DNA of 38,634 bases, taken from contig JACNKP010000067.1 in assembly GCA_014381985.1 (NCBI GenBank), forward strand, positions 1 to 38,634. Direction: 5' to 3'. This DNA is from SAR92 clade bacterium (GTDB taxonomy: Bacteria; Pseudomonadota; Gammaproteobacteria; Pseudomonadales; Porticoccaceae). The notes under the pieces were generated by a model that ran no database searches, was not told the origin of the DNA, and worked only from the letters and a program-made list of their open reading frames with translations. Position numbers and translations under genes: made by a program. Position 1 is the stretch's first letter, and every line of letters begins with the position of its first letter. Positions 11,638 through 32,690 of this stretch are shown here, piece after piece.

Positions 11638-12011
11638 GGCTAGAGCTCAACTTGTGTTTACTAAGCATAGCTAAAGAAGGTCGACTTATCTATACGGCTA
11701 TGCCCGTCCATAAAAGGAATAATGGCGGGGTCTGTGGGCCACTTATTGCCTCCCCAGTGATAAAAAAACCAATGCCTTAGGGGTTGTATTTGTTGCTGGT
11801 ACTCGATGTTCTTCGTTCTTAATATCGTGTCTATTAAAAGAGACCATAAGGAGTCTTTAAACAGACAGCAACGATAAGTCATTCTTCGGAATGAATAATT
11901 ATGTCGAGATAGGAACAAAAGATAAATCATAAAGCTCAACTGACATAGAGCTCACTTATTAAAGATTTTTGGGTTAAGACGCAAAAATTGGGACTTGAAA
12001 GGGGAAACAAC
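11638..12011. other. Divergent intergenic region, no confident gene
   Basis: These 374 AT-rich bases separate the RTX gene (minus) from the DmdA-like gene (plus) and must hold both promoters. A minus-strand frame (11661-11939, TTG start) ends with GGNKWPTDPAIIPFMDGHSR and a few more residues. Its composition is protein-like, but it has no recognisable domain, ribosome site or signal, so it could be a decayed gene tail. A good AGGGGA lies just before the plus-strand ATG at 12012. No terminator hairpin is evident. Confidence 0.4.
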
Positions 12012-13223: not shown

Positions 13224-13236
13224 TAGAGATAAACAA

Positions 13237-14874: not shown

Positions 14875-14989
14875 ACCACATGATGGCACTAGACTGGGCT
14901 GGTCAATTAACGATACTCTCGCTTTCTTAGACCTTACTAATAATGCAATCTAACACTAGAAAACATAAAGTATTTTAGGAGAAATTATT

Positions 14990-15790
14990 TTGGAAAAACT
15001 CGATAACTTTGATCTCGAAAATCTCACTCTCATCGGTGACGAAGACGGTATTGTGCAGGTTGTCCTGTCGCGGCCAGCAAAGCGTAATGCCCTAAATGCT
15101 CAAACTATTGAGGAATTGATCGAGGTTTTCTCTAAGCTCCCTAGGATGGGTGCCCGAGCCGTAGTGCTTCGAGCTGAAGGAGACCATTTCTGTGCTGGTT
15201 TAGACCTCGTCGAACACCACAATGAGCAGCGTCGCCCTGAAGAATTTATGCATATTTGCCTGCGTTGGCATGAAGCCTTTAATAAAATGGAATATGGTGG
15301 CGTGCCAATCATAGCTGCACTTAAAGGAGCCGTAGTTGGCGGTGGCCTGGAGCTTGCCTCTGCCGCTCACGTTCGCGTGGCTGATCAAAGCACCTATTTT
15401 GCATTGCCTGAAGGACAGCGTGGCCTATTTACCGGCGGTGGCGCAACTATTCGTGTTGCCGACCTTGTTGGTAAAGCACGCATGATCGATATGATGTTAA
15501 CCGGCAGAGTCTATAAGCAAGAAGAAGCCTTCCAAGTGGGCTTGTGTCAGTATCTTATCGACGGTTCAAGTGACGATAAAGCCATGGCGATTGCCCGTAC
15601 AGCGGCGGAAAATCCAGCCTTATCTAATTTTGCTATTTGCTCTGCAATTAGTCACATGCAAAATATGTCGGCGATGGATGCAGCCTACGCAGAATCTGTT
15701 ATGGCGGGCATTGTTAATACTCAGCCGGCTTCTAATGAAAGATTAGAGGCATTTGCCAATAAGAGCGCACCAAGAGTTCGTCCAGACTAA
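14990..15790 (+). CDS. Crotonase-family enoyl-CoA hydratase, DmdD-like, TTG start
   Basis: The 266-residue crotonase has the oxyanion-hole segment FCAGLDL (67-73) and [20 protein letters not shown]. Both hydratase glutamates are present, Glu121 and Glu141 (LPEGQRG). These are, as I recall, the same residue numbers reported for the catalytic glutamates of DmdD, the methylthioacryloyl-CoA hydratase that releases methanethiol. The first codon is TTG: AGGAGA at 14977-14982 lies seven bases before it, and no ATG occurs before the fold begins. A gap of 115 bases separates it from the ligase gene. DmdC, the dehydrogenase between the ligase and hydratase steps, is not in the window. Confidence 0.9.
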
Positions 15791-19413: not shown

Positions 19414-20694
19414 TTAAGTATGAAGGGTTGCATGAAAAAATTTATATAGCGGAATACCCAGCAAAAACAACCCTACTCCTAAAAGCAGAACATACAAACC
19501 AGAACCTGCGGCAGCTATCAAAGTATATGTGACTGACAACAAAGCCACTCCGGCCCAGCCCTTTGCGCTAAGCCAAGAACGCTTAAATTCTGCCACAGCA
19601 GATAACCCATAGGGCGCCAGAATTGAAAGGGTCGACATAGAAATTAGAAAAGAGAACGCGCCGACTAGCCCATCGGTAAAGTTAAGCACCAGTAAAGCCG
19701 TTGAAAATACACTGGATACCATAAGTGCTCCGGCTGGAGCTCCGCCCCTGTTTTTCTTTGCAATTATCGCAGGGGCTAAACCATCTGCAGCTACTGCCAT
19801 GGGCATCTGCCCCATCACAAATATATTGCCATTCAAAGCACCTGCTGTGGAGATTAAGGCGCCTACACCAATCAATAGCGCACCTCCCTTGCCCATGTGC
19901 GCGGCCGCATCAACAAAGGGCGATTCTGATACCGCCAATATGTCGGAAGGCACCAAGAACATAATAGCGATTGACGCGCCCACATAGAGTAATGACACAC
20001 TAAGCGCTGCAGACACTACCGCAATAGGAATCGTTTTCTTGGGGTTCTCCACATCAGCGGTTGGAATGACCGCGGCCTCTATGCCTATAAATGCCCACAT
20101 CGTTAATAACGCGGTAGTCGCCAATGCCTGAGAGATAGGTAACCCCTGCGGATTAAATGAAGGAAAGTTATCAATGTCACCGTAGGTAATCCCCAAACCT
20201 ATAATCACAACTAATGGAATAATTTTAAGTATGGTCAAAACCAACTGAACCGAAGCGGCCTCGGATACTCCTTTAACATTTACCCAAGTTAGCACTCCAA
20301 TGCCACCGGCTGCCACCAATGCCTGAGTGAGGCTGTTGGCCGTAAATATAGGAAATACTGATCCCATGTAACCTACGAAACCTATTGCTATAGCGGTGAC
20401 TCCAAACACGACGCCAACCCAGTAACCCCACCCTATCAAAAAGCCGGCTAGATCGCCGAAAGATTCCTTCACATAGGCATAAGGACCGCCTGCATTATCG
20501 GTAGTGCCCGCCAATCTCGCCAACACGAGGGCCAATACAATTGTTCCAGCAGAGGTCAACAACCAACCCAGCAAACTGATCCAGCCGTAAGGTGCCAGCA
20601 CCGCAGGTAGTAGAAAGATACCCGAGCCGATCATTACGCCTACTGACATTCCCCAACACTGCCAGAACCCCATTTTTTTGGTTGTTGCACTCAT
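19414..20694 (-). CDS. APC-superfamily amino acid permease
   Basis: The 426-residue integral membrane protein has about 12 hydrophobic segments. The APC first-helix signature GMSVGVMIGSGIFLLP lies near 15-30, followed by GGPYAYVKESFG near 69-80. AFIGIEAAVIPTADVENPKKT in the centre matches the transport-site helix of arginine/agmatine and polyamine-type carriers. AGGAGCACCG precedes the ATG. It is the last gene of a minus-strand operon, 54 bases after the guanidino hydrolase gene, so its substrate is probably the guanidino or amino compound handled by the two preceding enzymes. The exact solute and the direction (uptake or antiport) cannot be read from sequence. Confidence 0.92.
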   Translation of the reverse strand: MSATTKKMGFWQCWGMSVGVMIGSGIFLLPAVLAPYGWISLLGWLLTSAGTIVLALVLARLAGTTDNAGGPYAYVKESFGDLAGFLIGWGYWVGVVFGVTAIAIGFVGYMGSVFPIFTANSLTQALVAAGGIGVLTWVNVKGVSEAASVQLVLTILKIIPLVVIIGLGITYGDIDNFPSFNPQGLPISQALATTALLTMWAFIGIEAAVIPTADVENPKKTIPIAVVSAALSVSLLYVGASIAIMFLVPSDILAVSESPFVDAAAHMGKGGALLIGVGALISTAGALNGNIFVMGQMPMAVAADGLAPAIIAKKNRGGAPAGALMVSSVFSTALLVLNFTDGLVGAFSFLISMSTLSILAPYGLSAVAEFKRSWLSAKGWAGVALLSVTYTLIAAAGSGLYVLLLGVGLFLLGIPLYKFFHATLHT

Positions 20695-20748
20695 CGGTGC
20701 TCCTAGAAACCCCTTGGTTCTTTCATAGTTTAGTCGCTATTAAAGAAT

Positions 20749-21648
20749 CTAATACTGGGCCTTTTGCTTATTAGACGCTCGCAGAATAGGTCTCGTCATA
20801 CAAGTTGGCCCACCTTCACAGGGTATACAAAGTGACTCTCCACTAAAGGTATCGATTTTACAGCCAGCATTGCGCATCAGTGACAACGTTTTATCGCATC
20901 CATCAATTGCCACAACATGACGCGGAGCAAGAGTAAGTACATTTAGGTTTAATCCACCAGAGGCCTCAAACTCATCCGCTGGCGCCTCAAGCAATTCATA
21001 GCCTCTTGAGCTTAAGAGCTGGGCTAATGCAACAGGCAATAGCGCCTTATGCACCAACGCTAAGTCCTCTGCCAACAGGCTGATCAATGACATTAGGTGC
21101 AAGCATGCCTGCTCGCCCTGATAACAGGGCAAGTCAAAGGCTAAAACGGTTATCCCTTGATTGCCGAGCATGTTTTGCATCTGAATAATGCCGGCCTCAT
21201 TAGTTCTGTATCCACGCCCGATAAGTAATGTCTGATCATCTAACCAAAGCGTATCACCGGCCTCGCAGGTAGCTTCACCCATCACTTGCCCAATAACTGG
21301 AATGTTCATGGACTGGTAGAAAAGTCGATGTGATTCTGACTCACTAGCCCTAAGCACTTTTCCCGGGTTCATTAGAATGGCACCCTGAGGAGTCATTAAA
21401 GAAGCATCGTAAGTAAAAACTGCATCGGCTGATTCCATGTTTTCTGGCATCCACAACACTTCGACACCAGCTTGTTCGATATGCGAAACAAATTTTTGGT
21501 AATCTTTACCTAACTCTTTTGGATCAAAGCTATCGCCATAATGCCACTGATGAGCATCTGCGTTTCGCAACGTCTTTCCTGGGGCATGCAAAGCAACCCT
21601 TTGCAAGGGTGCGACCATTGAAGATACGCCGTAAGTCTTTACTGACAT
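20749..21648 (-). CDS. Guanidino-group hydrolase of the amidinotransferase/DDAH/arginine deiminase superfamily
   Basis: The 299-residue penta-fold enzyme has the superfamily catalytic elements in order: EAGD (Glu129, Asp132), GRGYRTN at 144-150, HLMS with His184, and the nucleophile Cys283 in GGPTCMTR near the C-terminus. DDAH relatives convert methylarginines to citrulline and methylamines, and deiminase relatives convert arginine to citrulline and ammonia. This protein could do either or act on another guanidine. The N-terminal motif MVAPLQRVALHAPG is family-typical. It lies 56 bases after the isochorismatase-like gene and 54 before the permease gene. Cytoplasmic. No strong ribosome site is seen before the ATG. 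Confidence 0.9.
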   Translation of the reverse strand: MSVKTYGVSSMVAPLQRVALHAPGKTLRNADAHQWHYGDSFDPKELGKDYQKFVSHIEQAGVEVLWMPENMESADAVFTYDASLMTPQGAILMNPGKVLRASESESHRLFYQSMNIPVIGQVMGEATCEAGDTLWLDDQTLLIGRGYRTNEAGIIQMQNMLGNQGITVLAFDLPCYQGEQACLHLMSLISLLAEDLALVHKALLPVALAQLLSSRGYELLEAPADEFEASGGLNLNVLTLAPRHVVAIDGCDKTLSLMRNAGCKIDTFSGESLCIPCEGGPTCMTRPILRASNKQKAQY

Positions 21649-21704
21649 GGTTGTGATTTAAACATTTAATGAATTGTTGATTTTGCTGTTTATCAACTGG
21701 ACTT

Positions 21705-22325
21705 TCATTCGTTACCCTGTCGGCGATCGGCGTCCACTAAATCCCCTGCAACAAGACTCAATGCTTGATTCATATCAAGGGCAGTGCAGAACTCGCCATG
21801 CAGATTGGCCACCGTCATTGAATGCACCAAATCCGGATCATAATCTGTGCCATCAGGTCCTACCCGATTTGTTGTTGCACAACAGTCTGGTACAAGGTAA
21901 GTATCAAACCCCATATTTCCGGACATTCTAATGGTAGTTTCAACACAACAATTGGTAAAAAAGCCAACCACCACCAATCTTTGAACACCCGCTCTGCGCA
22001 GTAGAATCTCTAGCGATGTCCCAACAAAACCGCTATTTACATCTTTCTCAACGACTATATCGCTGGCGGCAATTTCAAAGCCTGGTTTCAACTCACCTCC
22101 GGGCTCGGAAAGCTTTAATGGGGAGGCTGCTTCGCGAGAATCATGCAAAGTCCAGGCAACTGGCAACCCACGTTGTCGCCACTCAGATAACAGCGCGAGC
22201 ATATTATTTTCAGCCTCAAGGTTGTTTCTGCGGCCAGTTTTACCGCCCCAATGAGCCAAAACATCAACACCCTTTTGCACATCGATTAGGAGTAGACAGC
22301 TATCCTTGGAAAATTGATTAATCAA
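21705..22325 (-). CDS. Isochorismatase-like cysteine hydrolase, TTG start
   Basis: The 206-residue enzyme has the family triad: Asp15 in LLLIDVQKG, Lys94 in VVEKDVNSGF and Cys127 in FFTNCCVETT. Members hydrolyse amides such as N-carbamoylsarcosine, ureidoacrylate or nicotinamide. Next to a guanidine hydrolase, a carbamoyl (ureido) substrate is the most economical guess. The first codon is TTG, preceded by AGGAAGAAG; no ATG or GTG precedes the catalytic Asp, so TTG is required. It is the first gene of the operon leading to the permease. The 347-base divergent region upstream carries its promoter. Confidence 0.88.
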   Translation of the reverse strand: MINQFSKDSCLLLIDVQKGVDVLAHWGGKTGRRNNLEAENNMLALLSEWRQRGLPVAWTLHDSREAASPLKLSEPGGELKPGFEIAASDIVVEKDVNSGFVGTSLEILLRRAGVQRLVVVGFFTNCCVETTIRMSGNMGFDTYLVPDCCATTNRVGPDGTDYDPDLVHSMTVANLHGEFCTALDMNQALSLVAGDLVDADRRQGNE

Positions 22326-22672: not shown

Positions 22673-23542
22673 ATGACTGGCTGGGAAAATGGCGATTGGC
22701 GCGATGAGAGCTTATGCATATTTGATCAATCGAACCTACTAAACAAGATGGGCCTCGAATTTTATGATCTCAGTCATCCGTGGGGGTTAGGGCAGCCATG
22801 CTGGCCGTATTTTGAAGACGTCAAAATCGAACGCCTACATGGCATGTCTAAATCGGGGGTTCTGACCCAAAAGATCACAACAGTCATGCACTCAGGAACC
22901 CATGTCGACGCCCCAGCACATGTGGTTCCAGGTACACCATTTATGGATGAAGTTCCTTTACCGTATTTTTTTGGTAGCGGCGTGATCGTATCTATTCCTA
23001 AGAATAAGTGGGAAGTCATCACAGCCGAAGATTTGGAAAATGCTCGACCAAAAATTCGTGAAGACGACATTGTTATCGTGAACACAGGTTGGCACAAATA
23101 TTACGGCGATAATCAGCACTATTACGGATATTCTCCCGGCTTTTATAAAGAAGCTGGCGATTGGTTTGTTAAGAAAAAAGTGAAGATGGTTGGAAACGAT
23201 ACACAGGCTCTCGACCATCCTCTCGGCACAGCGATTGGCCCGCATGGACCGGGTGCCCCCCATGGTCTTCTGCCCAATGTTGTTGAGGAATATGAGCGTG
23301 AAACTGGCCGCAAAGTTCTTGATGATTTTCCTGAATGGGAGCCGTGTCACAATGCCATTCTGTCCGCCGGAATCTGCGGCTTTGAAAATATCGGCGGCGA
23401 CATCGACAAAGTGACCGGTAAAAGGGTGACTTTTGCTGCTTTCCCATGGCGCTGGAAAAAGGGTGACGGCTGCATTGTCCGCCTGGTCGCAATCGTAGAC
23501 CCATCAGGCACGTTCCGTATTGAAACCGGTAAGTCTGAATAA
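22673..23542 (+). CDS. Cyclase-family metal-dependent hydrolase (kynurenine formamidase-like)
   Basis: The protein has 289 residues. The family motif HSGTHVDAPAH lies at 73-83 (His73, His77, Asp79, His83 bind Zn or Mn), preceded by YDLSHPWGLGQPCWP near 31-45. TAIGPHGPGAPHG further on is also family-like. Members hydrolyse N-formylkynurenine or open cyclic amides and lactones, or act in polyketide cyclisation. Here it is the first gene of a long catabolic operon, so ring or formamide hydrolysis of the imported substrate is a reasonable inference. AAAGGAG is well placed before the ATG at 22673. The stop overlaps the next start (TAATG). Confidence 0.9.
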   Translation: MTGWENGDWRDESLCIFDQSNLLNKMGLEFYDLSHPWGLGQPCWPYFEDVKIERLHGMSKSGVLTQKITTVMHSGTHVDAPAHVVPGTPFMDEVPLPYFFGSGVIVSIPKNKWEVITAEDLENARPKIREDDIVIVNTGWHKYYGDNQHYYGYSPGFYKEAGDWFVKKKVKMVGNDTQALDHPLGTAIGPHGPGAPHGLLPNVVEEYERETGRKVLDDFPEWEPCHNAILSAGICGFENIGGDIDKVTGKRVTFAAFPWRWKKGDGCIVRLVAIVDPSGTFRIETGKSE

Positions 23543-23889
23543 TGAAGGTTACACGTATAGAAAAGGCTGAGCCTTACCAAGCACCGAACCACTTTGATTG
23601 CACAGCGTTGCGTTTACAGGGGTTTGATGCAAGCTCAGCCGAAAATTTCTGGGTTGGGCTTTCGCACATCTTGCCTAACGGCGGCACCACGATGGAAGGA
23701 ACAAACCTTGAGAAAGTTTACATCGTTGTCTCTGGCGAAGTTACGGTGGTAACGTCCGAGGGCCGTGCTACGCTTGGCGTTCATGACAGTTGTCACATCC
23801 CCGCAAACGAGAGGCGTCAAGTGATTAACGAAACCAATGAAACTGCATCCATGATTGTCGTTATGCCATATCCGGAGGGAAAACGATAA
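23542..23889 (+). CDS. Small cupin-domain protein
   Basis: The 115-residue single cupin barrel has NGGTTMEGTNLEKVYIVVSG near 50-70 and HDSCHIPANERRQVINET near 92-109. The usual first-motif histidines are weakly kept, with Glu/Lys/Tyr in their places, while His in SCHIPA is present. It could isomerise or bind a small oxygenated metabolite, or sense one. It is translationally coupled to the cyclase gene (TAATG overlap at 23540-23544). Its own stop codon overlaps the anomalous ATA start of the SDR gene. Its position between hydrolase and dehydrogenase genes suggests an enzymatic role in the same pathway. Confidence 0.85.
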   Translation: MKVTRIEKAEPYQAPNHFDCTALRLQGFDASSAENFWVGLSHILPNGGTTMEGTNLEKVYIVVSGEVTVVTSEGRATLGVHDSCHIPANERRQVINETNETASMIVVMPYPEGKR

Positions 23890-24686
23890 CACTTCCCGAA
23901 ATCAATACGAAGACCCTATTTGATGTACGCGGCAAATCAGCAATTGTCGTCGGCGCGACTGGTGCCTTCGGGAAAGTTGTTTGCGCAACACTTGGTAACG
24001 CTGGTGCCAAACTGACAATTACTGCCGGCAATGCTCAAGAACTCGAGTCCCTGAGACAAGAGCTTAAAGCCGCTGATGTTGATGTTGCCGCGGTAAATAA
24101 ACGACCTAATACGGAAGAAGACTGTCAAGAGATGGTAGACACCGCCTTGTCAGCATATGGTGCCATTGATATTCTTGTGGTGGCATCGGGCACAAATGAA
24201 GTTGCTCCTATCGTCGATATGGAGCCAACTCAGTTTAGGAAAGTCATGCTCGCCAATGTTGACGGCGCCTGGCTGATTTCACGTGCTGTCGGTAAAGTCA
24301 TGATCGAACAGGGTCGCGGAGGGAAAGTCGTATTTACGTCCTCTGCACGCGGCAAGTTGGGTCACCCTGCAGGGTATTCAGCCTACTGCACATCAAAAGC
24401 GGCCACTGACGGCCTTACGAAAGCCCTTGGATGTGAGTGGGGAAAATACGGGGTAACAGTAAATGCCATAGCACCAACAGTTTTTCGATCACCACTTACA
24501 GCTTGGATGTTCGAAGACGACGATCACGCGAAGAGTGTGAGGGCCGGTTTTCTATCACGCGTGCCGGTCGGTCGGCTCGGTGAGCCCGAGGACCTAGCTG
24601 GACCGCTCCTATTTTTGTGCTCTGCTGCGTCAGATTTCCATACAGGCCACATTGTGTATGCTGATGGCGGGTATACGGCGGGATAA
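23886..24686 (+). CDS. Short-chain dehydrogenase/reductase with ATA in place of a start codon
   Basis: Read from ATA at 23886 this is a 266-residue SDR of normal length. The nucleotide-binding motif is VVGATGAFG (Gly23, Gly26, Gly29) and the catalytic residues are Ser152 or Ser153 plus Tyr167 and Lys171 (YCTSK). ADGGYTAG comes at the C-terminus. It oxidises or reduces an alcohol or ketone with NAD(P). No ATG, GTG or TTG exists in frame before the Rossmann motif; the first ATG (24132, residue 83) would delete the cofactor site. GGAGGG ends six bases before the ATA. The ATA overlaps the cupin stop as ATAA, where ATGA would be usual. One G-to-A change explains this without harming the cupin stop. 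Confidence 0.82.
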   Translation: MTLPEINTKTLFDVRGKSAIVVGATGAFGKVVCATLGNAGAKLTITAGNAQELESLRQELKAADVDVAAVNKRPNTEEDCQEMVDTALSAYGAIDILVVASGTNEVAPIVDMEPTQFRKVMLANVDGAWLISRAVGKVMIEQGRGGKVVFTSSARGKLGHPAGYSAYCTSKAATDGLTKALGCEWGKYGVTVNAIAPTVFRSPLTAWMFEDDDHAKSVRAGFLSRVPVGRLGEPEDLAGPLLFLCSAASDFHTGHIVYADGGYTAG

Positions 24687-24692
24687 TACCAA

Positions 24693-25598
24693 ATGATTGA
24701 TAACAATAAGATAGCAATAATCGGCGCTGGGCTCATGGGAGCTGGAATTGCGCAAGTATTCGCTTCAAAAGGTTTTTCGGTTTCTGTTTGCGATCCCATT
24801 GAGGATGTGCGGCTCTCTTTAAAGACGCGCATTCAAGACGGTCTAAAGTCAGTTGCGTCCGACCCGTCTATTGCCGATCACGTCAATGTGACCCGTGATA
24901 TGAGTGAAGCTCTGTCCGGCGCTTTCGCAGTCTTTGAAGCTGCCCCGGAAAAATTGGAAATAAAACAATCAATCTTCAAGGAATTGGATAAAATCGCCGC
25001 TCCAGAGACTATTCTAGCGAGCAATACATCTGTTATTTCCATATCAAATATCGCAAAATCTGTCATACGCCGCGAACGCATGTTGGGAACCCATTGGTGG
25101 AACCCACCCTACCTCGTACCGCTTGTCGAAGTTGTTCCAATCGCTGAAACCAAGGACAAAGTGACCACTCAAATGATAGACCTTCTTAGCAATGTTGGTA
25201 AGAAGCCGGTCCTCGTCAAAAGAGATGTTCCAGGCTTTGTGGGAAATCGGCTTCAGCACGCCCTATGGCGAGAAGCGCATGCTTTGATTGAGGAAGGCGT
25301 CTGTGATGCAGAGACGATCGATATTGTTGTGAAGAACAGTTTTGGTATGCGCTTACCGGTATTGGGTCCGATCGAGAATGCCGACCTTGTTGGGCTCGAC
25401 CTTACACTTGATATCCATAGAACGATTTTGCCGGAACTTTCCAAGAGGTCTGATCCAAGCCCCGCACTGGTTAAGAACATTGAGGCAGGGCGGCTTGGAT
25501 TTAAGACTGGCAAAGGTTTTCGTGACTGGACTGATGAGCAAATTCAAGAAACCCGAACAACCCTGTCGCAGCACTTATTGAAGACTCTACGCGAGTAA
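24693..25598 (+). CDS. 3-hydroxyacyl-CoA dehydrogenase family NAD-dependent dehydrogenase
   Basis: The protein has 301 residues. The NAD-binding N-terminus is AIIGAGLMGAGIAQVFASKG (8-27), followed by SNTSVISIS near 110 and GTHWWNPPYLVPLVEVV near 130-146, the family catalytic His segment. The C-terminal helical domain begins near DVPGFVGNRLQHALWREA. The family includes 3-hydroxybutyryl-CoA dehydrogenase and L-carnitine 3-dehydrogenase. The WNPPYLVPLVEVV form together with a BKACE gene downstream recalls the carnitine case. It would turn a 3-hydroxy acid or its CoA ester into a 3-keto compound for BKACE. It starts six bases after the SDR gene. Confidence 0.92.
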   Translation: MIDNNKIAIIGAGLMGAGIAQVFASKGFSVSVCDPIEDVRLSLKTRIQDGLKSVASDPSIADHVNVTRDMSEALSGAFAVFEAAPEKLEIKQSIFKELDKIAAPETILASNTSVISISNIAKSVIRRERMLGTHWWNPPYLVPLVEVVPIAETKDKVTTQMIDLLSNVGKKPVLVKRDVPGFVGNRLQHALWREAHALIEEGVCDAETIDIVVKNSFGMRLPVLGPIENADLVGLDLTLDIHRTILPELSKRSDPSPALVKNIEAGRLGFKTGKGFRDWTDEQIQETRTTLSQHLLKTLRE

Positions 25599-25625
25599 GA
25601 CTTAGAGCTGAGGAGCAAACACATT

Positions 25626-27116
25626 ATGGATGTATCTCTTTTGATTGGTGTTCTCGCTTATGAACTGATTATTATTGTTGGCCTTGGAGTATGGCTTCAG
25701 AGGCGTCATAAAGTTAGTTCAAAGGACGAATTCGCCCTCGCGGGGCGGGACTTGCCGGTTCCAGTTGTGGCTGTGACATTAGCGCTGACAGTTCTGGGTA
25801 CTGCACATATTCTAGGCGTTTTCGAAATGACCTGGATGATGGGCGCTGTCGCTGTCTGGTTTTCGATCGCACACGTCATCCTGTTAACCTTCGTTTGTCT
25901 CGGCACGGGACTCTGGGTTCGTCGATTAGGGGTGACAACCGTTCCAGAATTGATAGACCGTGTTTCTGGGCTGGAAACCCGTCTTCTCGTCTCTTGTGTT
26001 ATGGCCGGCGTGTTGTTCGGAATTTTGACCATTGAGGCTCAAGGCATTGGGATTATCTTTGCGACGCTCACAGACTGGAATATTCAAACCGGCGCTATAG
26101 TCGGAGGCATTCTGGGTATTCTTTATGTGATTTTTGCCGGAATGCGCGAAATCGGCTGGGTCAACCTTGTTAACGCTGTGGTGATGTATGCAGGCCTGAT
26201 TCTTGCGACAATTTTCGTGGCATTCAGTCTTCCCGAAGGTGGATTTGATAGCGTCGGTGAATTTTACAAAACGACGGGACAAGAATCCGCCATCTCGATC
26301 TGGGGTACAGCGGATCTCATGGTCAACTTTGCCATCGTCAATATTGTCGCCGTGGTATTTAGTCAAAGCGTCAACCAGATGTTGCTACAGCCTGCAATGT
26401 CCGCGAAAGACGAAGCAACAATAAAGAAGGCGCTGTGGATTGCAGCCCCTGTCAACGGTCTGTTCGGCGTTTTTGCTGTCGTTCTTGCGTTGGCAGCACG
26501 TGCGCAACCTGAATTTTCCGAGCTCGCCAATGCGCCGAAAATTGGCGTTACAACCATGCTTATAACCACGCTTCCTCCCTGGCTCGGCGCCGTACTTCTC
26601 GCATCCTTTCTTGCTGCAATCCTATCGACATTTGCCATCATCGCACTATCGATCGCGACAATTTTTACCAAAGATATCTTTCAGGCACTGTACGCACCGA
26701 ATGCCAGCGAAAAATCGATGACTATGGTTATACGTTTAGTCATCATCGTTGTTGCAGGCATTGCAATTGCTGTGGCTTCACTGCTGCCTCCAATATTGGC
26801 CGCCATGATCTGGCTCTTTGCCTGGTTAGTTCCCGTGTTCTGGATTTTGATGTCTGGTATTCTGTGGAAGCGCCATCAGGGCGTCTCTATTGCAACATTA
26901 ATTGTGGCTTGGGCTGCAAATGCAGCCTGGTCTTTCTCCAGCCTACCGCAGGTAATGGGATTTGAGGCAGCCGGGAACCTCAACGCCTATGTAACTGCAA
27001 TAGTATCAATTGTCATTCTCGTCATAGGAAACAGTTTGGTCGTTGGCGCGCCAGGGCTTTTTCGTGAAAATGCGACGACCACCGGCAATACCCAGACAAC
27101 GACAGGAGATCAATAA
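25626..27116 (+). CDS. Sodium:solute symporter (SSS family)
   Basis: The 496-residue membrane protein has about 13 hydrophobic segments. SSS family features include an N-terminal helix followed by SSKDEFALAGRDLPV near 35-49, a conserved region typical of pantothenate/proline/acetate-type symporters. It couples Na+ entry to uptake of an organic solute, presumably the operon substrate or a product formed in the periplasm. GAGGAG lies upstream of the ATG. The stop overlaps the ATG of a 39-residue membrane protein (TAATG). The tail is hydrophilic and Thr-rich. Confidence 0.93.
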   Translation: MDVSLLIGVLAYELIIIVGLGVWLQRRHKVSSKDEFALAGRDLPVPVVAVTLALTVLGTAHILGVFEMTWMMGAVAVWFSIAHVILLTFVCLGTGLWVRRLGVTTVPELIDRVSGLETRLLVSCVMAGVLFGILTIEAQGIGIIFATLTDWNIQTGAIVGGILGILYVIFAGMREIGWVNLVNAVVMYAGLILATIFVAFSLPEGGFDSVGEFYKTTGQESAISIWGTADLMVNFAIVNIVAVVFSQSVNQMLLQPAMSAKDEATIKKALWIAAPVNGLFGVFAVVLALAARAQPEFSELANAPKIGVTTMLITTLPPWLGAVLLASFLAAILSTFAIIALSIATIFTKDIFQALYAPNASEKSMTMVIRLVIIVVAGIAIAVASLLPPILAAMIWLFAWLVPVFWILMSGILWKRHQGVSIATLIVAWAANAAWSFSSLPQVMGFEAAGNLNAYVTAIVSIVILVIGNSLVVGAPGLFRENATTTGNTQTTTGDQ

Positions 27117-27235
27117 TGTTTTGGTCAATATTTCTGCAGAGCTTCATACTCATTATAGCAATCGTAATTGCTGGTCGTGTCATTGCAGCATTTACAGACA
27201 AACGAGCTAAAACCAAAAGCGATAGGAGCGCCTAA
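27116..27235 (+). CDS. 39-residue single-helix membrane protein, coupled to symporter
   Basis: The product begins MFWSIFLQSFILIIAIVIAG and has a basic tail (TDKRAKTKSDRSA), so it should span the membrane once with the C-terminus inside. The ATG overlaps the symporter stop (TAATG) and AGGAG lies just upstream, so translation is well supported. No family is recognised. Tight coupling suggests a small accessory subunit of the symporter. Confidence 0.7.
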   Translation: MFWSIFLQSFILIIAIVIAGRVIAAFTDKRAKTKSDRSA

Positions 27236-27239
27236 AATC

Positions 27240-27377
27240 ATGGACGTAACACAAGCCTGGATGGTGGGTGTGGTCGCTGCCATGTCTGTCTTTGGCGGCT
27301 TTGCACTTGTTGGATATTTCTTACGACGCGTGCGTGAGCTCAGAACAAACATTGAGATTGAGAAGGATCGCAGCTAA
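27240..27377 (+). CDS. 45-residue single-helix membrane protein, coupled to BKACE gene
   Basis: The product begins MDVTQAWMVGVVAAMSVFGG, continues hydrophobic to about residue 27, then ends in an Arg/Glu-rich tail (RRVRELRTNIEIEKDRS) that may form a short amphipathic helix. It starts four bases after the preceding small gene, and its stop overlaps the BKACE ATG (TAATG). AGGAG lies about 12 bases upstream. No family is recognised; it is probably a second small partner of the symporter. Confidence 0.68.
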   Translation: MDVTQAWMVGVVAAMSVFGGFALVGYFLRRVRELRTNIEIEKDRS

Positions 27378-28309
27378 TGGCAAAGAAAAAAGTAATTATA
27401 ACCTGCGCTATAACAGGCGCAATACATACGCCTACCATGTCGGACGCCCTACCCTACCGTACGGAGGATATAGCACGTCAGGCTCTCGATGCTGCCGAAG
27501 CTGGTGCCGCAATCTTGCATCTACACGCGCGCAATCCTGAAGATGGATCTGTATCACTTGATCCCGATCACTTCATGGGTTTTCTGCCAACGATTAAGCA
27601 AGCAACCAATGCGGTTGTAAATATATCAACGGGCGGCAGCTTGGTCACCACCATTGATGATCGCATGAAGCCTGCCAAACGGGCATCCCCCGAAATGTGC
27701 TCAATAAATATGGGTTCTATGAATTTCTCCTTCCACCCCTTGGCCGATCGCTACGACGATTGGAAATTCGACTGGGAAGAAGAGTATGTAAAAAATTCGG
27801 ATAGTTTTATTTTCCGCAATACCTTCGCCGATATAGCGAAGGTTGCAAATGAACTAGGCGGCGATTACGGCATTAAATTCGAACATGAATGCTATGATGT
27901 CGGACATCTGTATAACCTTGATTTTTGCATGAAACAGGGGTTGTTCAAAGCTCCGATCTTCATTCAATTTATTTTTGGCATTCTTGGCGGCATTGGGCCC
28001 GAAATCGATAATCTCATCTTCATGAAGAGAACCGCGGATCGCTTATTTGGTGATCAGTATCAGTGGTCCGTTCTGGGTGCTGGTGGAGCGCAAATGCCCC
28101 TAGCCGCAGCAGCAGCGACAATGGGGGGCAACGTTCGCGTGGGACTTGAGGATTCTCTTTTCATTGAACGCGGCAAACTTGCCACGTCAAACGCTGAGCA
28201 GGTAGCCAAAGTTCGCGGCATCGTTGAGGGGCTTGGATATGAAGTGGCAACACCTGACGATGCACGGGAAATGTTAGCCCTTAAAGGTGGCGACAAGGTT
28301 ACTTTCTGA
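27377..28309 (+). CDS. Beta-keto acid cleavage enzyme (BKACE, DUF849)
   Basis: The 310-residue TIM-barrel enzyme has the BKACE hallmarks: ITCAITGAIHTP (8-19), ILHLHARNPEDG with zinc ligands His48 and His50, NISTGGS (82-88), and VGLEDSLF with Glu258 as the third conserved ligand. BKACE cleaves a beta-keto acid with acetyl-CoA, giving acetoacetate and a new acyl-CoA. Known members act on 3-keto-5-aminohexanoate (Kce) or 3-dehydrocarnitine. The 3-hydroxyacyl dehydrogenase gene upstream can supply the keto acid, and the CoA-transferase genes downstream can handle the acetoacetate. The start overlaps the previous stop (TAATG). Cytoplasmic. Substrate not deducible. Confidence 0.95.
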   Translation: MAKKKVIITCAITGAIHTPTMSDALPYRTEDIARQALDAAEAGAAILHLHARNPEDGSVSLDPDHFMGFLPTIKQATNAVVNISTGGSLVTTIDDRMKPAKRASPEMCSINMGSMNFSFHPLADRYDDWKFDWEEEYVKNSDSFIFRNTFADIAKVANELGGDYGIKFEHECYDVGHLYNLDFCMKQGLFKAPIFIQFIFGILGGIGPEIDNLIFMKRTADRLFGDQYQWSVLGAGGAQMPLAAAAATMGGNVRVGLEDSLFIERGKLATSNAEQVAKVRGIVEGLGYEVATPDDAREMLALKGGDKVTF

Positions 28310-28415
28310 TCTGATTTTATCTCGCTGTGTGGAGTATACCGTCCTGGGGGCATGGCGTTGTTCAATTATGAGATGTAATTCCATTCCAAAGATTTTTAAC
28401 CAAGTGGAGAATATT

Positions 28416-28718
28416 ATGAAGAGCCCTACTGTCTTAGTATCAGTTTTAGCGACGATTGTATCAATCTCGGTTTCCCAAGCACAGGAAAGTCCACGTGGTG
28501 CGGAATGCAAATCTGACTTCCAGGCTTTGAGCGCTGCGAACGGAATGACCGTCACTGAGGAAGAAGTTGGAACGTTTTGCGAATGCATGGGACCCCAAGT
28601 AAAAGCAAACCCGGCTTTAGCAACCGAGATTGAAACCAATAGTGGGCTTCCGCCAAAAGAGAGTGCAAGCCCAGAGATGTTAGAAGCTGTTGAAAGCTGT
28701 CTTCCTGCAAAAGGTTAG
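28416..28718 (+). CDS. Small exported cysteine-containing protein, unknown function
   Basis: The protein has 100 residues with a clear signal peptide (MKSPTVLVSVLATIVSISVSQAQ), leaving about 77 residues. Four Cys (GAECK, FCECMG, ESCLP) suggest two disulfides in the periplasm, and the spacing (CEC in the middle) is not a recognised haem or metal motif. GTGGAG lies before the ATG at 28416; the longer upstream frame lacks a signal sequence at its start and is rejected. It sits between cytoplasmic catabolic genes (BKACE and CoA-transferase), which is odd for a periplasmic protein unless it serves the same substrate outside. Confidence 0.8.
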   Translation: MKSPTVLVSVLATIVSISVSQAQESPRGAECKSDFQALSAANGMTVTEEEVGTFCECMGPQVKANPALATEIETNSGLPPKESASPEMLEAVESCLPAKG

Positions 28719-28764
28719 ACGTTGGCCGTCAATTTACTGATCTGTCAAAGCGAGGTTTCCAAAA

Positions 28765-29472
28765 ATGCCTTCAAAAGTTTTTCAAAGTGCCGCTGATGCA
28801 CTCTCCGATCTTACCTTTAACGGTATGACGCTCATGAGCGGAGGGTTTGGTCTTTGCGGTATTCCTGAGAATTTAATCGCAGCTGTGCATGAGGCAGGTA
28901 TGCAAGACATCTCTATTGTATCGAACAATTGCGGCGTAGATGGCTTTGGTCTCGGGATCTTACTTGATGCCAAGCAGATTAAGAAGATGATCTCTTCTTA
29001 TGTCGGAGAGAATAAAGAGTTCGAGCGTCAGTATTTAGAAGGGGAACTTGAGCTTGAATTTAATCCCCAGGGAACTCTGGCAGAGCGTATCCGTGCTGGT
29101 GGTGCGGGCATCCCAGGCTTTTATACCAAAACAGGCGTAGGAACGCTGATTGCCGAAGGTAAGGAGCACAAAGACTTCAATGGAGAGACGTACATGTTAG
29201 AAACGGGCCTGACCGCCGATGTCTCTCTGGTAAAGGCCTGGAAGGCAGATAAAGAGGGTAATCTCGTATACCGAAAAACAGCCAGGAATTTTAACCCAAT
29301 GATGGCAACAGCCGGTAAGGTCACTGTCGTTGAGGTAGAGACGATTGTTGAGAGCGGTGAGCTTGATCCCGACGAAATTCATACGCCGGGAATTTATGTA
29401 CAGCGGGTCATCAAAGGCACTTTTGAAAAACGCATTGAGCAATGCACGACCCGTTCTCGAGGAGATGTATAA
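28765..29472 (+). CDS. scoA: 3-oxoacid CoA-transferase subunit A
   Basis: The 235-residue alpha subunit matches ScoA-type sequences closely: MSGGFGLCGIPENLIAAVHE near 28-47, SNNCGVDGFGLG, ISSYVGENKEFERQYLEGEL and AGGAGIPGFYTKTGVGT. With subunit B it transfers CoA from succinyl-CoA to acetoacetate, forming acetoacetyl-CoA. This fits the BKACE gene upstream, which releases acetoacetate. The stop overlaps the subunit B start (TAATG). GAGG lies upstream of the ATG. Cytoplasmic. Confidence 0.95.
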   Translation: MPSKVFQSAADALSDLTFNGMTLMSGGFGLCGIPENLIAAVHEAGMQDISIVSNNCGVDGFGLGILLDAKQIKKMISSYVGENKEFERQYLEGELELEFNPQGTLAERIRAGGAGIPGFYTKTGVGTLIAEGKEHKDFNGETYMLETGLTADVSLVKAWKADKEGNLVYRKTARNFNPMMATAGKVTVVEVETIVESGELDPDEIHTPGIYVQRVIKGTFEKRIEQCTTRSRGDV

Positions 29473-30128
29473 TGTCGGGCGCCGGACAAAAAGGTTGGAA
29501 TCGAAATCAGATGGCTGCTCGTGCGGCCCTCGAACTCAAAGACGGTTTTTATTGTAATCTGGGTATAGGAATTCCGACACTCGTTGCGAATTATATTCCC
29601 GAAGGGATGCATATCACTCTTCAATCGGAAAATGGTATGCTCGGCATGGGGCCGTTCCCGTATGACGGAGAAGAAGACGCTGATCTGATCAATGCCGGAA
29701 AGCAAACCATAACGGAACTTGATATGAGCTCTTACTTCTCATCGTCTGATAGCTTTGCCATGGTCAGAGGCGGTCATATTAATCTCTCAATCTTAGGTGC
29801 TATGGAAGTTTCCGAAAAAGGAGATCTCGCCAATTGGATGATACCTGGAAAAATGGTCAAGGGAATGGGTGGCGCCATGGATCTGGTAGCCGGCGTTAAG
29901 CGCGTTGTTGTCGTGATGGACCATACGTCAAAATCTGGTGATCCAAAGCTTCTGCATGAATGCTCGTTACCCCTAACTGGTCAACAAGTTGTCGATATGG
30001 TTATCACCAATTTTGGCGTTTTCGAGATTGATCGCGGGAAAGGTATGCGGCTTACTGAACTTTCTCAAGATATGACTGTGGAAGATATCAAGCAATCAAC
30101 AGAAGCCCACTTTGATATTGCACTATAA
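29472..30128 (+). CDS. scoB: 3-oxoacid CoA-transferase subunit B
   Basis: The 218-residue beta subunit carries the catalytic glutamate Glu53 in LQSENGMLGMGP and the family segments CNLGIGIPTLVANY and GAMDLVAGVKRVVVVMDH. The ATG at 29472 overlaps the subunit A stop and follows GAGGAGATGTATA; an upstream in-frame start at 29442 lies inside subunit A and is rejected. It is the last gene of the first operon. Its stop codon lies inside the left arm of a 25-bp perfect inverted repeat. Confidence 0.95.
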   Translation: MSGAGQKGWNRNQMAARAALELKDGFYCNLGIGIPTLVANYIPEGMHITLQSENGMLGMGPFPYDGEEDADLINAGKQTITELDMSSYFSSSDSFAMVRGGHINLSILGAMEVSEKGDLANWMIPGKMVKGMGGAMDLVAGVKRVVVVMDHTSKSGDPKLLHECSLPLTGQQVVDMVITNFGVFEIDRGKGMRLTELSQDMTVEDIKQSTEAHFDIAL

Positions 30129-30186
30129 TGAGTCAGGCCTAAAGAACCACGCCCAGAATGGGGTTCTTTAGGCCTGACTCATTATA
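30124..30186. repeat. 25-bp perfect inverted repeat overlapping the end of scoB
   Basis: Positions 30124-30148 (TATAATGAGTCAGGCCTAAA then GAACC) are the exact reverse complement of 30162-30186, around a 13-base loop. The stop codon of the CoA-transferase gene lies within the left arm. There is no T-run after either arm, so it is not a textbook intrinsic terminator, though such a hairpin would be very stable in RNA. A miniature mobile element, a processing or 3'-protection element, or a rho-assisted terminator are options. Confidence 0.9.
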
Positions 30187-30240
30187 GGAGTTTCTGCATT
30201 GAAGCTGGTGTGAGAATTCAGGCAGTTCGTCATATTGAAC

Positions 30241-30269
30241 TTGACACGTTTATTGCAACCTCATACTAT
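30241..30269 (+). promoter_or_regulatory. Near-consensus sigma-70 promoter for the TonB receptor block
   Basis: TTGACA (30241-30246) is a perfect -35 box, followed after exactly 17 bases by TACTAT (30264-30269), five of six matches to the -10 box. The predicted start near 30276 leaves a leader of about 108 bases that begins with a strong inverted repeat. It would drive the TonB receptor and perhaps the genes after it. Confidence 0.65.
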
Positions 30270-30277
30270 ACCACTAT

Positions 30278-30321
30278 GCACTACATGATAACCGTATTGT
30301 GGTACATTTATCATGTAGTGC
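30278..30321. repeat. 14-bp inverted repeat at the predicted transcript start, candidate operator
   Basis: GCACTACATGATAA (30278-30291) and its exact reverse complement (30308-30321) flank 16 bases. The left arm starts a couple of bases after the predicted transcription start. This fits an operator for a dimeric repressor or a 5' hairpin in the leader RNA. No T-run follows, so attenuation by simple termination is unlikely. Confidence 0.7.
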
Positions 30322-30383
30322 GAAAGGCTTCTTTGGTCGGAATTGCCTGCCCCAGGGTAGGGCAAGAAATACAGGGGAATGAT

Positions 30384-32690
30384 ATGTTTCAAAAAAACAA
30401 ATTTGTTATGGCGCTACTCTTAAGTAGCTCAGTTATATCGATACAGACTGCACAAGCACAAATCGAAGAGATCATTGTAACCGCAACAAAACGCAACGAG
30501 GGATTGCAGGATATTCCCATTTCTGTAACCGCATTCTCCCAGGATGACCTCGATAGGCTCGGTTATAGCAATCTCCAAGGCGTTCAGGAATCAACGCCAA
30601 ACCTAAACTTCGCGATTCATGGTTTTGACTCAAACGTCGCCCGCGTCACACTGCGCGGCATTGGTACTGAAACGCTTGTTGGTGGCGGCGACCCGGGCGT
30701 CGCGCTGCATATAGATGGCGTTTACGTGGGGCGAAATTCTGCGTCTGCAAGCGATATTTTTGATATCGAACGCGTCGAAGTTCTTCGCGGTCCACAAGGA
30801 ACGCTCTATGGCCGGAACGCAACAGGCGGTTCGGTTAATCTTGTTACCAAACGCCCAACAGATGAGCTCGAAGGTCGCGCCGATATCACTTACGGTAATT
30901 ATAACGCCTTAAGGGTGCGCGGCGTTGTAAATGTTCCTTTAACAGACAAAGTCAGTTCTCGTCTCGCACTCTATTCCGATACCCATGACGGCTATATGGA
31001 GAACCTCTACGACGCTGGTCGCGATTCCAACGACAGAGACAACCAGGGTGCACGGCTTCAATTTTTGTGGCAATCGGATTCGGGCAATGAAGTCCTCCTC
31101 CGTGGATACTATTCGAGCTTTGGAGGTGTCGGACCAGGCGGACGATATCTTGGCAAGGATATTCCTACAGCTAATGGTTATCCCGCGAGATATCAGATTG
31201 GGGTTTCGGCGGGCCCTTTACCGCCGCGCGGTGCCCCAATTACTGCCGATCTTTATAACAATGCCACCACTGTGGCGGGGGATTCAGTCTTGCCGCGTCC
31301 AACCGATCCGCATCAGGTTCGAAAAGACGCCCCGGAATTTCTAGATCAAACAATCAAAGGCATTGACTTAGAGGCGACCTTTAACTTGACCCAAGGCGTT
31401 TTGCTCAAATCGATCAGTTCATATCAGGAAAACGACAACGAAATTCTTGTTGATTCGGACAACTCTGAACTACCAATTGCAACACGCCAAAGAAACAATA
31501 TGGCGTCACAGTTCAGTCAGGAGTTCAATCTGATCTCGCAAACAGATTCGCCATTCCAGTGGTTGCTTGGTGCTTATTTATACCATGAAGAGTTGACGGA
31601 AACATTCCGGACTAGGTTAACTGCCGGACTACTGCCGAAAACGCTTCCACTGCCCCCCGGTGCGACTCCTGGCGGTGGCGGCTTTGGACAATACCGGGTC
31701 GCCGATTACAAAGTAGATTCTTACGGGCTGTTTGCGCAGCTTTCCTACGACCTTACTGACCGACTCTCGGTAACTGGCGGCGTACGACATACTTGGGACA
31801 ACAAACACCAAGCGCGCACGACTGGTGGACTTGTCGGTACATCCAACAATGTTCGATTTATGAGCGGCGCTAACGGCCCGTTGCCGCCTGATGCCGGCGA
31901 CGTTTCTTTCTCCGAATTCACGTATCGGTTCAGCGCAGATTACGCACTCTCAGATGACAATTTAATTTTTGCCAGCTATTCTCATGGATACAAATCCGGC
32001 GGGTTTGACTTCAATGGCGGGCAAGTTGTCGGCGGGGGGGAGCAACTTCCATACAATCCCGAATTTGTAAATGCCTACGAGGTCGGATCAAAAAACAGGT
32101 TCTATGATGATCGAGTATTGCTGAACCTGACCGGCTTTTACTACGATTATCAAGACCTTCAAGTCTTCCGACTGACGGAATTTGGTCCGCTTACTGATAA
32201 TGCCGCTCAATCGACCATTAGGGGAGTTGAAGCAGAAGTGGAACTAGCGCCTACCGATGGTCTCCGATTTGACGGCGCCGTCGGATATCTTGACGCAACA
32301 TACGATACGTACACGATTGATATTCCACCATCGAACTTCTCCGGGAATCGATTGAACTACGCACCAAAGTGGACGGCTCATGCCGGCGCTGAATATGCTA
32401 CGCCCATTGGTCCAAATGAACTTGTTTTCCGTGTCGACTGGTCGTATCGGTCTGACACGTTTTTTGATCGCGCCAACACTGCATTTGACACACAAGAATC
32501 CTATAGCTTGGTAAATGCCAGGATTCGCTATAATGCAGAAGAATGGTACATTGACGTGTTCGGTAATAATCTCGCCGATAAAGATTATGTAACCGGCCAG
32601 TTAATTAATCCGCCGTTTGTCTGCGGATGTCGAGTAGTGAATGTCGGCGCTCCGCGTACTTATGGCGCATCATTCGGGGTTCGATTCTAG
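30384..32690 (+). CDS. TonB-dependent outer membrane receptor
   Basis: The 768-residue receptor has a signal peptide (cleavage near AQAQ) and a TonB-box-like EEIIVTATKR. The plug domain contains VTLRGIGTE, DGVYVGRN and VEVLRGPQGTLYGRNATGGSV, and the beta-barrel ends in a terminal Phe (YGASFGVRF). It imports a large or scarce substrate across the outer membrane using TonB. Placement with a sulfatase and catabolic enzymes suggests an organic substrate rather than a siderophore. AGGGGA lies six to eight bases before the ATG at 30384. Longer in-frame starts upstream would put non-signal sequence first and overlap the promoter, so they are rejected. Confidence 0.93.
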   Translation: MFQKNKFVMALLLSSSVISIQTAQAQIEEIIVTATKRNEGLQDIPISVTAFSQDDLDRLGYSNLQGVQESTPNLNFAIHGFDSNVARVTLRGIGTETLVGGGDPGVALHIDGVYVGRNSASASDIFDIERVEVLRGPQGTLYGRNATGGSVNLVTKRPTDELEGRADITYGNYNALRVRGVVNVPLTDKVSSRLALYSDTHDGYMENLYDAGRDSNDRDNQGARLQFLWQSDSGNEVLLRGYYSSFGGVGPGGRYLGKDIPTANGYPARYQIGVSAGPLPPRGAPITADLYNNATTVAGDSVLPRPTDPHQVRKDAPEFLDQTIKGIDLEATFNLTQGVLLKSISSYQENDNEILVDSDNSELPIATRQRNNMASQFSQEFNLISQTDSPFQWLLGAYLYHEELTETFRTRLTAGLLPKTLPLPPGATPGGGGFGQYRVADYKVDSYGLFAQLSYDLTDRLSVTGGVRHTWDNKHQARTTGGLVGTSNNVRFMSGANGPLPPDAGDVSFSEFTYRFSADYALSDDNLIFASYSHGYKSGGFDFNGGQVVGGGEQLPYNPEFVNAYEVGSKNRFYDDRVLLNLTGFYYDYQDLQVFRLTEFGPLTDNAAQSTIRGVEAEVELAPTDGLRFDGAVGYLDATYDTYTIDIPPSNFSGNRLNYAPKWTAHAGAEYATPIGPNELVFRVDWSYRSDTFFDRANTAFDTQESYSLVNARIRYNAEEWYIDVFGNNLADKDYVTGQLINPPFVCGCRVVNVGAPRTYGASFGVRF

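What the first reader, a model, noticed from the sequence alone, without database searches (positions are those of the whole stretch)
22673..30128. Unassigned catabolic operon built around BKACE and a 3-oxoacid CoA-transferase
Eleven genes in tight order, many with TAATG overlaps, join a cyclase-family hydrolase, cupin, SDR, 3-hydroxyacyl dehydrogenase, Na+ symporter, two tiny membrane proteins, BKACE, an exported Cys protein and ScoAB. The logic is coherent: 3-hydroxy acid to 3-keto acid, BKACE plus acetyl-CoA to acetoacetate and a new acyl-CoA, ScoAB activating the acetoacetate. Carnitine degradation shares the dehydrogenase plus BKACE core, but no betainyl-CoA thioesterase is present, and the cyclase, cupin and SDR suggest extra ring-opening or carbonyl steps. 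The substrate may be new.
Basis: partly seen in the sequence, partly recalled or inferred. Interest (0 to 1): 0.72.

Follow-up and report, generated by a model that had tools for sequence, protein, structure and literature searches.

The report
Phloroglucinol-degradation operon with dedicated cupin
These genes most likely let a bacterium eat phloroglucinol, a common plant and algal phenol, by a pathway already known from other bacteria, and they usually travel with a small barrel-shaped protein whose job has not been explained.

Summary
The eleven genes are real. The substrate is not unassigned: the set matches the published reductive phloroglucinol pathway (PMC10470551). SDR = phloroglucinol reductase, cyclase = dihydrophloroglucinol cyclohydrolase (DPGC), 3HCDH protein = triacetate-forming dehydrogenase, BKACE = 3,5-dioxohexanoate cleavage (passes that NCBIfam equivalog cut-off), ScoAB = acetoacetate activation. 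Carnitine is excluded: both carnitine dehydrogenase models are missed here, and another locus of the same genome passes one.

What I found in no paper searched: the cupin. In 398 genomes of the phylum, 8 have DPGC and all 8 have this cupin (10 of 398 overall, window genome included); against this, 4 mycobacterial genomes with DPGC and SDR lack it. It lacks the conserved histidine ligands of its closest solved fold and has an invariant Arg near one of their sites. Five mycobacterial members, lying in the same cluster, pass NCBI's 'beta-D-galactosidase' model, apparently named after Rv1717, so that name may hide a phloroglucinol-pathway protein.

Other differences: the reductase's NADPH-binding Arg is missing in 83 of 86 aligned proteins, the BKACE is of another subfamily, and a Na+ symporter comes with two conserved tiny membrane proteins. 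No activity was measured.

The parts
22673..23542 (+). Cyclase-family hydrolase, dihydrophloroglucinol cyclohydrolase (DPGC) candidate: hydrolytic (retro-Claisen) opening of dihydrophloroglucinol to 3-hydroxy-5-oxohexanoate
   Evidence: PF04199; 91% identical to a Novosphingobium plasmid protein; H73, H77, D79 (metal site of the family, recalled) and W44-P-Y46 are at least 95% conserved in 91 rows; the W/Y pair fits the Trp20/Tyr22 that the paper names for the C. scatologenes enzyme (the match by spacing is mine)
23542..23889 (+). Dedicated cupin of unknown role, 115 aa
23886..24686 (+). SDR, phloroglucinol reductase candidate; ATA start codon
   Evidence: best solved relative 5g4k at 193 bits, next entry 139; TAGN where 5g4k has TGRN
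24693..25598 (+). 3HCDH-family (S)-3-hydroxy-5-oxohexanoate dehydrogenase candidate
   Evidence: PF02737/PF00725; Ser113, His134, Asn185 conserved in at least 95% of 70 rows; the Asn of 3-hydroxybutyryl-CoA dehydrogenase named as CoA contact is replaced
25626..27116 (+). Na+/solute symporter, presumed importer
   Evidence: SSF PF00474; a relative lies near the cyclase in 11 of 80 named loci
27116..27235 (+). small membrane protein 1 (39 aa)
   Evidence: relatives directly behind the symporter in L045, L044, L067, L103, shuffle z 9.4-14.0; L081 only 2.8
27240..27377 (+). small membrane protein 2 (45 aa)
   Evidence: relatives behind the symporter in L045, L044, L067, L103, L047, L043, shuffle z 9.6-16.8; L081 only 3.7
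27377..28309 (+). BKACE, 3,5-dioxohexanoate (triacetate) cleaving enzyme candidate
   Evidence: NCBIfam NF053538 525 bits, cut-off 430
28416..28718 (+). exported Cys-containing small protein, role unknown
   Evidence: no Pfam family; no hit at E 1e-6 and 50 bits in the other loci compared
28765..29472 (+). 3-oxoacid CoA-transferase subunit A
   Evidence: TIGR02429 256 bits, cut-off 128.5
29472..30128 (+). 3-oxoacid CoA-transferase subunit B
   Evidence: TIGR02428 323 bits, cut-off 243.6
30123..30187 (.). long hairpin at the end of the operon
   Evidence: RNA fold -47.3 kcal/mol, z -9.6

Best explanation
A catabolic operon for phloroglucinol (1,3,5-trihydroxybenzene) or a compound funnelled into it. 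Proposed steps: (1) Na+-coupled uptake by the symporter with two small membrane partners (inferred). (2) SDR reduces phloroglucinol to dihydrophloroglucinol (by homology). (3) The cyclase-family enzyme hydrolyses the cyclic 1,3-diketone to (S)-3-hydroxy-5-oxohexanoate (by homology). (4) The 3HCDH-family enzyme oxidises the free 3-hydroxy acid to 3,5-dioxohexanoate (by homology). (5) BKACE with acetyl-CoA gives acetoacetate and acetoacetyl-CoA (by homology). (6) ScoAB activates the acetoacetate, and thiolysis yields acetyl-CoA (inferred). No oxygen is used, and steps 2 and 4 cancel in redox if they share a coenzyme. The cupin is a dedicated, probably metal-free helper, perhaps a tautomerase or carrier for one of the enolic intermediates (speculative).
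For: Each of the four enzymes of the in vitro reconstituted C. scatologenes pathway has a counterpart here (paper sections read). SDR: 5g4k is the top solved relative by 54 bits; that this entry is the Clostridium phloroglucinol reductase is recalled. The DPGC residues that the paper contrasts with isatin hydrolase are kept. The dehydrogenase keeps Ser/His/Asn and lacks the CoA-contact Asn, as described for CsTfD. BKACE passes a 3,5-dioxohexanoate equivalog, and the solved relative BKACE15 (8rio, 359 bits) has 3,5-dioxohexanoate among its confirmed substrates (PMC11961710, passages). Rubrivivax gelatinosus, a species the paper names among reported phloroglucinol degraders, holds (strain DSM 1709) ScoA-ScoB-cupin-SDR-DPGC-BKACE in a row plus a second DPGC 83% identical to the window's. 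In Rhizorhabdus and Aminobacter the cluster lies within about 8 kb of hydroxyquinol dioxygenase or maleylacetate reductase genes, that is, other polyphenol catabolism. Carnitine: the window dehydrogenase scores 157 of 592 and 123 of 414 bits needed, whereas contig 51 of the same genome has a protein at 687 of 592 next to another BKACE.
Against: No assay, expression data or phenotype. The Arg at the reductase's NADPH-binding loop is absent (3 of 86 rows have it). The Trp16 that the paper links to triacetate is Ile16 here (3 of 67 rows have Trp). The window BKACE is only 36% identical to the Trp-type enzyme of Acetoanaerobium, and BKACE15, its closer relative, is promiscuous with unknown physiological role. 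The SDR may lack an ordinary start codon. The Rubrivivax stretch held shows no dehydrogenase hit, though it ends at a contig end, and L055 itself has no other pathway gene beside the cyclase.
Confidence: 0.85

Rival explanations
1. Same chemistry on a different ring: a substituted phloroglucinol (acyl, methyl) or another cyclic 1,3-diketone, with phloroglucinol only a side substrate.
For: Reductase loop and BKACE pocket residue differ from the characterised Clostridial enzymes; BKACE15 accepts several beta-keto acids; Novosphingobium and Rhizorhabdus stretches have an extra CocE/NonD-type hydrolase.
Against: A third ring oxygen is needed to leave the 3-hydroxy group that the dehydrogenase and BKACE require (chemical reasoning); DPGC is closely conserved, also with Rubrivivax; no extra tailoring enzyme among the genes given a family.
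Confidence: 0.12
2. Carnitine degradation variant in which ScoAB replaces betainyl-CoA thioesterase.
For: Dehydrogenase plus BKACE plus CoA-transferase core.
Against: Carnitine dehydrogenase models not met here, one of them met on contig 51 of the same genome; cyclase and SDR have no place in it.
Confidence: 0.01
3. Oxidative deoxyribonate catabolism (SDR plus BKACE).
For: SDR and BKACE pairing is published for it (PMC6365646, passages).
Against: No lactonase or glycerate kinase among the genes given a family; the paper's main text does not contain the words cupin or cyclase.
Confidence: 0.01
4. Gonyol (dimethylsulfonio-hydroxypentanoate) catabolism feeding the DMSP genes upstream in the window.
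For: A DMSP-demethylase-like gene (below its cut-off) lies 9 kb upstream; the BKACE reaction would be chemically sensible.
Against: Does not use the cyclase or SDR; no DMSP gene is annotated in the six annotated plasmid stretches around cyclase relatives.
Confidence: 0.01

Closest known systems
Phloroglucinol degradation cluster of Clostridium scatologenes (PGR, DPGC, TfD, TAL; PMC10470551)
   Same: All four enzyme families and reaction order; a CoA-transferase for acetoacetate
   Different: Reductase lacks the NADPH-loop Arg; BKACE belongs to the 310-aa NF053538 subfamily with Ile16, not Trp16; SSS symporter with two small proteins instead of the paper's 'major family transporter'; cupin present (the paper's main text has no occurrence of the word; whether that organism has one was not checked)
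Plasmid-borne clusters in Novosphingobium pentaromativorans US6-1 pLA3 and Rhizorhabdus wittichii RW1 pSWIT02
   Same: Order cyclase-cupin-SDR-dehydrogenase-(transporter)-BKACE; cyclase 91% and 89% identical
   Different: The other proteins are less alike (cupin 51 and 48%, SDR 75%, dehydrogenase 56 and 52%, BKACE 62 and 64%); MFS or no transporter; ScoAB about 5 kb upstream in Rhizorhabdus, not found in the Novosphingobium stretch
Robiginitomaculum MAG locus L045
   Same: DPGC-SDR-dehydrogenase-SSS-small proteins-BKACE-ScoA-ScoB order
   Different: cupin is on another contig; DPGC 84% identical
Mycobacterial cluster (M. riyadhense plasmid L029 and others; Rv1714-Rv1716 in PMC5894108)
   Same: SDR, dehydrogenase, cyclase, cupin, BKACE side by side
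   Different: a third BKACE subfamily (TGPIATK); the cupin passes NCBI's beta-D-galactosidase model

Membership tests
Reductive phloroglucinol degradation pathway | SDR related to phloroglucinol reductase | tested here: met
   5g4k best of 634 matched sequences, 193 vs 139 bits for the next entry; identity of 5g4k recalled
Reductive phloroglucinol degradation pathway | NADPH 2'-phosphate motif TR(S/N) in the reductase | tested here: not met
   TAGN in the window where 5g4k has TGRN; Arg at that site in 3 of 86 rows. A trait the paper reports for the reductases it aligned; the placing of the motif is mine
Reductive phloroglucinol degradation pathway | cyclase-family DPGC with metal site and Trp/Tyr pair | tested here: met
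Reductive phloroglucinol degradation pathway | 3HCDH-family dehydrogenase with Ser/His/Asn but without the CoA-contact residues | tested here: met
   Asn replaced by Arg in the alignment; the Lys lies in a gapped stretch
Reductive phloroglucinol degradation pathway | BKACE acting on 3,5-dioxohexanoate | tested here: met
   NF053538 525 vs 430 bits; by model only
Reductive phloroglucinol degradation pathway | Trp16 in the BKACE pocket as in CsTAL | tested here: not met
   Ile16; 3 of 67 rows have Trp
Reductive phloroglucinol degradation pathway | enzyme activity or growth on phloroglucinol | not testable with these tools
   needs bench work
Carnitine degradation (CDH, BKACE, betainyl-CoA thioesterase) | carnitine dehydrogenase model | tested here: not met
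   157 of 592 and 123 of 414 bits; the first is met on contig 51
Carnitine degradation (CDH, BKACE, betainyl-CoA thioesterase) | thioesterase gene or domain | tested here: not met
   no such Pfam match in the ten of the eleven proteins scanned
NF050094 beta-D-galactosidase | equivalog cut-off 175 bits | tested here: not met
   window cupin 99 bits over the full length; five of five mycobacterial cluster cupins scanned pass, 186-205 bits
Metal-dependent cupins (TM1459 type) | conserved His metal ligands (52, 54, 58, 92 of TM1459; the first three from entry titles, 92 recalled) | tested here: not met
   only one His column (17) is conserved in 85% or more of 62 rows; by the near 1:1 numbering the ligand sites fall at about E52, T54, K58 and R92. 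Binding of a metal by other residues is not excluded

The most novel reading that the evidence does not exclude
The phloroglucinol pathway has a fifth, overlooked component: a metal-free cupin with invariant Arg92, His17, Tyr12, Tyr60, Asp82 and Asn96 that acts on an enolic intermediate (tautomerase or carrier). Rv1717 of M. tuberculosis, published as a beta-galactosidase, belongs to this family, so its true context is polyphenol catabolism.
Probability: 0.45. Interest if true: 0.62.

Novelty: new member of a known kind. Interest (0 to 1): 0.42.

Why it matters
It assigns an operon that automatic annotation leaves as unrelated parts; adds a 2.5 Mb genome, of a genus in which I saw the cluster in few members, to the carriers of oxygen-independent phloroglucinol catabolism (possibly relevant to algal and plant polyphenol carbon); and points to one small conserved protein whose role is open and testable, with a bearing on how a mycobacterial protein family is named.
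Full report
Observation. The eleven genes lie in the stated order and strand, and Pfam gives a family for eight of them. Four junctions are TAATG overlaps, read. The SDR frame starts with ATA at 23886, overlapping the cupin stop; of 87 SDR frames examined (the window's own copy and one overlapping duplicate locus included) 69 start with ATG, 15 with GTG, 1 with TTG, and 2 (the window's own and L085) have no ordinary start near the expected place.

Assignment. The BKACE passes the NCBIfam equivalog for 3,5-dioxohexanoate and acetyl-CoA at 525 bits (cut-off 430). That led to the phloroglucinol pathway of Clostridium scatologenes, whose results and discussion I read (PMC10470551): SDR-type reductase, cyclase-family cyclohydrolase, 3HCDH-type dehydrogenase of the free acid, and a BKACE, with CoA-transferase and thiolase downstream. 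The four enzymes and a CoA-transferase have counterparts here; a thiolase is not among the eleven genes. The SDR's best solved relative is 5g4k (193 bits, next entry 139); that 5g4k is the Clostridium phloroglucinol reductase is recalled. The cyclase keeps the Trp-x-Tyr pair that the paper contrasts with isatin hydrolase. The dehydrogenase keeps Ser113, His134 and Asn185, and an Arg stands where 3-hydroxybutyryl-CoA dehydrogenase has its CoA-contact Asn (the pairing is read by me from the HMMER alignment). Its closest solved relative is a pyridine-carboxylate dehydrogenase, 4om8, at 186 bits, and its best NCBIfam score is 234 of 500 for that family, so no equivalog names it.

Not carnitine. 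The window dehydrogenase reaches 157 of the 592 bits and 123 of the 414 bits that the two carnitine models need. The same genome holds, on contig 51, another BKACE followed by a protein that reaches 687 of 592 on the first and 345 of 414 on the second.

Neighbourhood conservation. A scan of the plasmid collection found the cyclase at 91% identity in Novosphingobium and 89% in Rhizorhabdus, each followed by cupin, SDR, dehydrogenase and BKACE. Of the 80, 55 have at least 5 kb on both sides; of these 41 have the cupin, 53 the SDR, 41 the dehydrogenase, 39 the BKACE and 36 all of them within 8 kb of the cyclase. Of the 38 with SDR, dehydrogenase and BKACE, 36 also have the cupin; the two others are L067, whose genome has a cupin elsewhere, and L088, whose genome shows only a partial match. 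The ScoAB pair was near in only 1 of the 55 and the symporter in 7.

A known degrader. The paper cites Rubrivivax gelatinosus as a reported phloroglucinol degrader. Locus L055 (strain DSM 1709) has a cyclase 83% identical to ours but no other pathway gene beside it. Searching its genome found a cupin and an SDR side by side elsewhere; the stretch reads ScoA-ScoB-cupin-SDR-DPGC-BKACE near a contig end, with SDR and BKACE 70% and 66% identical to those of Acetoanaerobium, and no dehydrogenase hit.

Mycobacterial link. The five cupins scanned from mycobacterial loci of this cluster pass NCBI's beta-D-galactosidase equivalog (186-205 bits, cut-off 175), while four others (window, L032, L127, L113) match it over nearly full length at 79-99 bits. 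That the model is named after Rv1717 is my inference from its label. The Rv1717 paper (PMC7873859, passages) reports beta-D-galactosidase activity of the purified protein with kinetics, which speaks against my reading; it also reports no known glycosidase active-site motif and does not mention Rv1714, Rv1715, Rv1716 or Rv1718. Another paper (PMC5894108, passages) reports that Rv1714-Rv1716 share about 40% identity with a Clostridium polyphenol cluster and that ProX of the same organism binds phloretin and acylphloroglucinols. I did not fetch that organism's genome; that Rv1717 follows Rv1716 is inferred from the numbering.

Variation. At the site of the reductase's NADPH-loop Arg, 83 of 86 aligned SDRs, the window's included, have another residue; whether they use NADH is open. 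Three BKACE groups serve these clusters by their N-terminal motif: TG(A/G)(I/M)HTP in 43 of 67 rows, TGPIA in 20, TGAW in 3, and one outlier (L064) (my grouping). Of 11 symporter-bearing loci looked at, I compared the tiny proteins of 7 with the window's: similarity beyond shuffles in 6, weak in L081.

Taxonomy and transfer. The window genome's RecA is at most 78% identical to 15 chosen genomes: 76-78% to Pseudomaricurvus, Pseudomonas, a Cellvibrionales MAG, Haliea and an Alteromonas, 67-68% to two alphaproteobacterial MAGs, but also only 68-69% to three genomes named as gammaproteobacteria. In the cyclase tree gamma- and alphaproteobacterial rows are intermixed in a supported group of 19, and among 34 other species of the genus sampled only one (G032) has a BKACE like the window's; G193 of the same genus has the cluster too. 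This suggests transfer between lineages at some time. It does not show recent transfer: the cyclase is strongly conserved in all loci kept, and the other Novosphingobium cluster proteins are only 51-75% identical to the window's.

Limits. Function rests on homology and context; no activity was measured. The window is from a draft assembly of 82 contigs. Paper searches cover open-licence papers only.

Noticed in passing
window 11988-15790 +: DMSP-demethylase-like GcvT protein (355 bits, below the 410 cut-off), acyl-CoA synthetase and crotonase in a row, resembling a DMSP demethylation set.
   Followed up: partly
window 23886: SDR opens with ATA overlapping the cupin stop where a relative has an ordinary start; real rare start or a base error.
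   Followed up: partly
window 30123-30187: Near-perfect hairpin of about 28 pairs directly at the end of ScoB, no clear T-run behind it.
   Followed up: partly
window 30210-32690 +: TonB-dependent receptor directly downstream, possibly an outer-membrane route for the substrate.
   Followed up: no
L002 (own genome contig 51): Separate locus: BKACE beside a protein that passes the carnitine 3-dehydrogenase model.
   Followed up: yes
L034 7153-8780 and L025 200-1839: Two cyclase-family genes in tandem in Rhizobium sp. ACO-34A and in G307; in the copies aligned the Tyr of the Trp-x-Tyr pair is Ser.
   Followed up: no
L093, L094, L096, L099, L102, L105, L106, L110, L111, L112, L114: Mycobacterial loci with SDR and cyclase only; dehydrogenase, BKACE and cupin not found within 8 kb.
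   Followed up: partly
window 19414-22325 -: Arginine-deiminase/DDAH-like, isochorismatase-like and amino-acid permease genes divergent from the operon.
   Followed up: no
window 28416-28718 +: Exported Cys-containing 100-aa protein between BKACE and ScoA without a hit in the other loci compared.
   Followed up: partly
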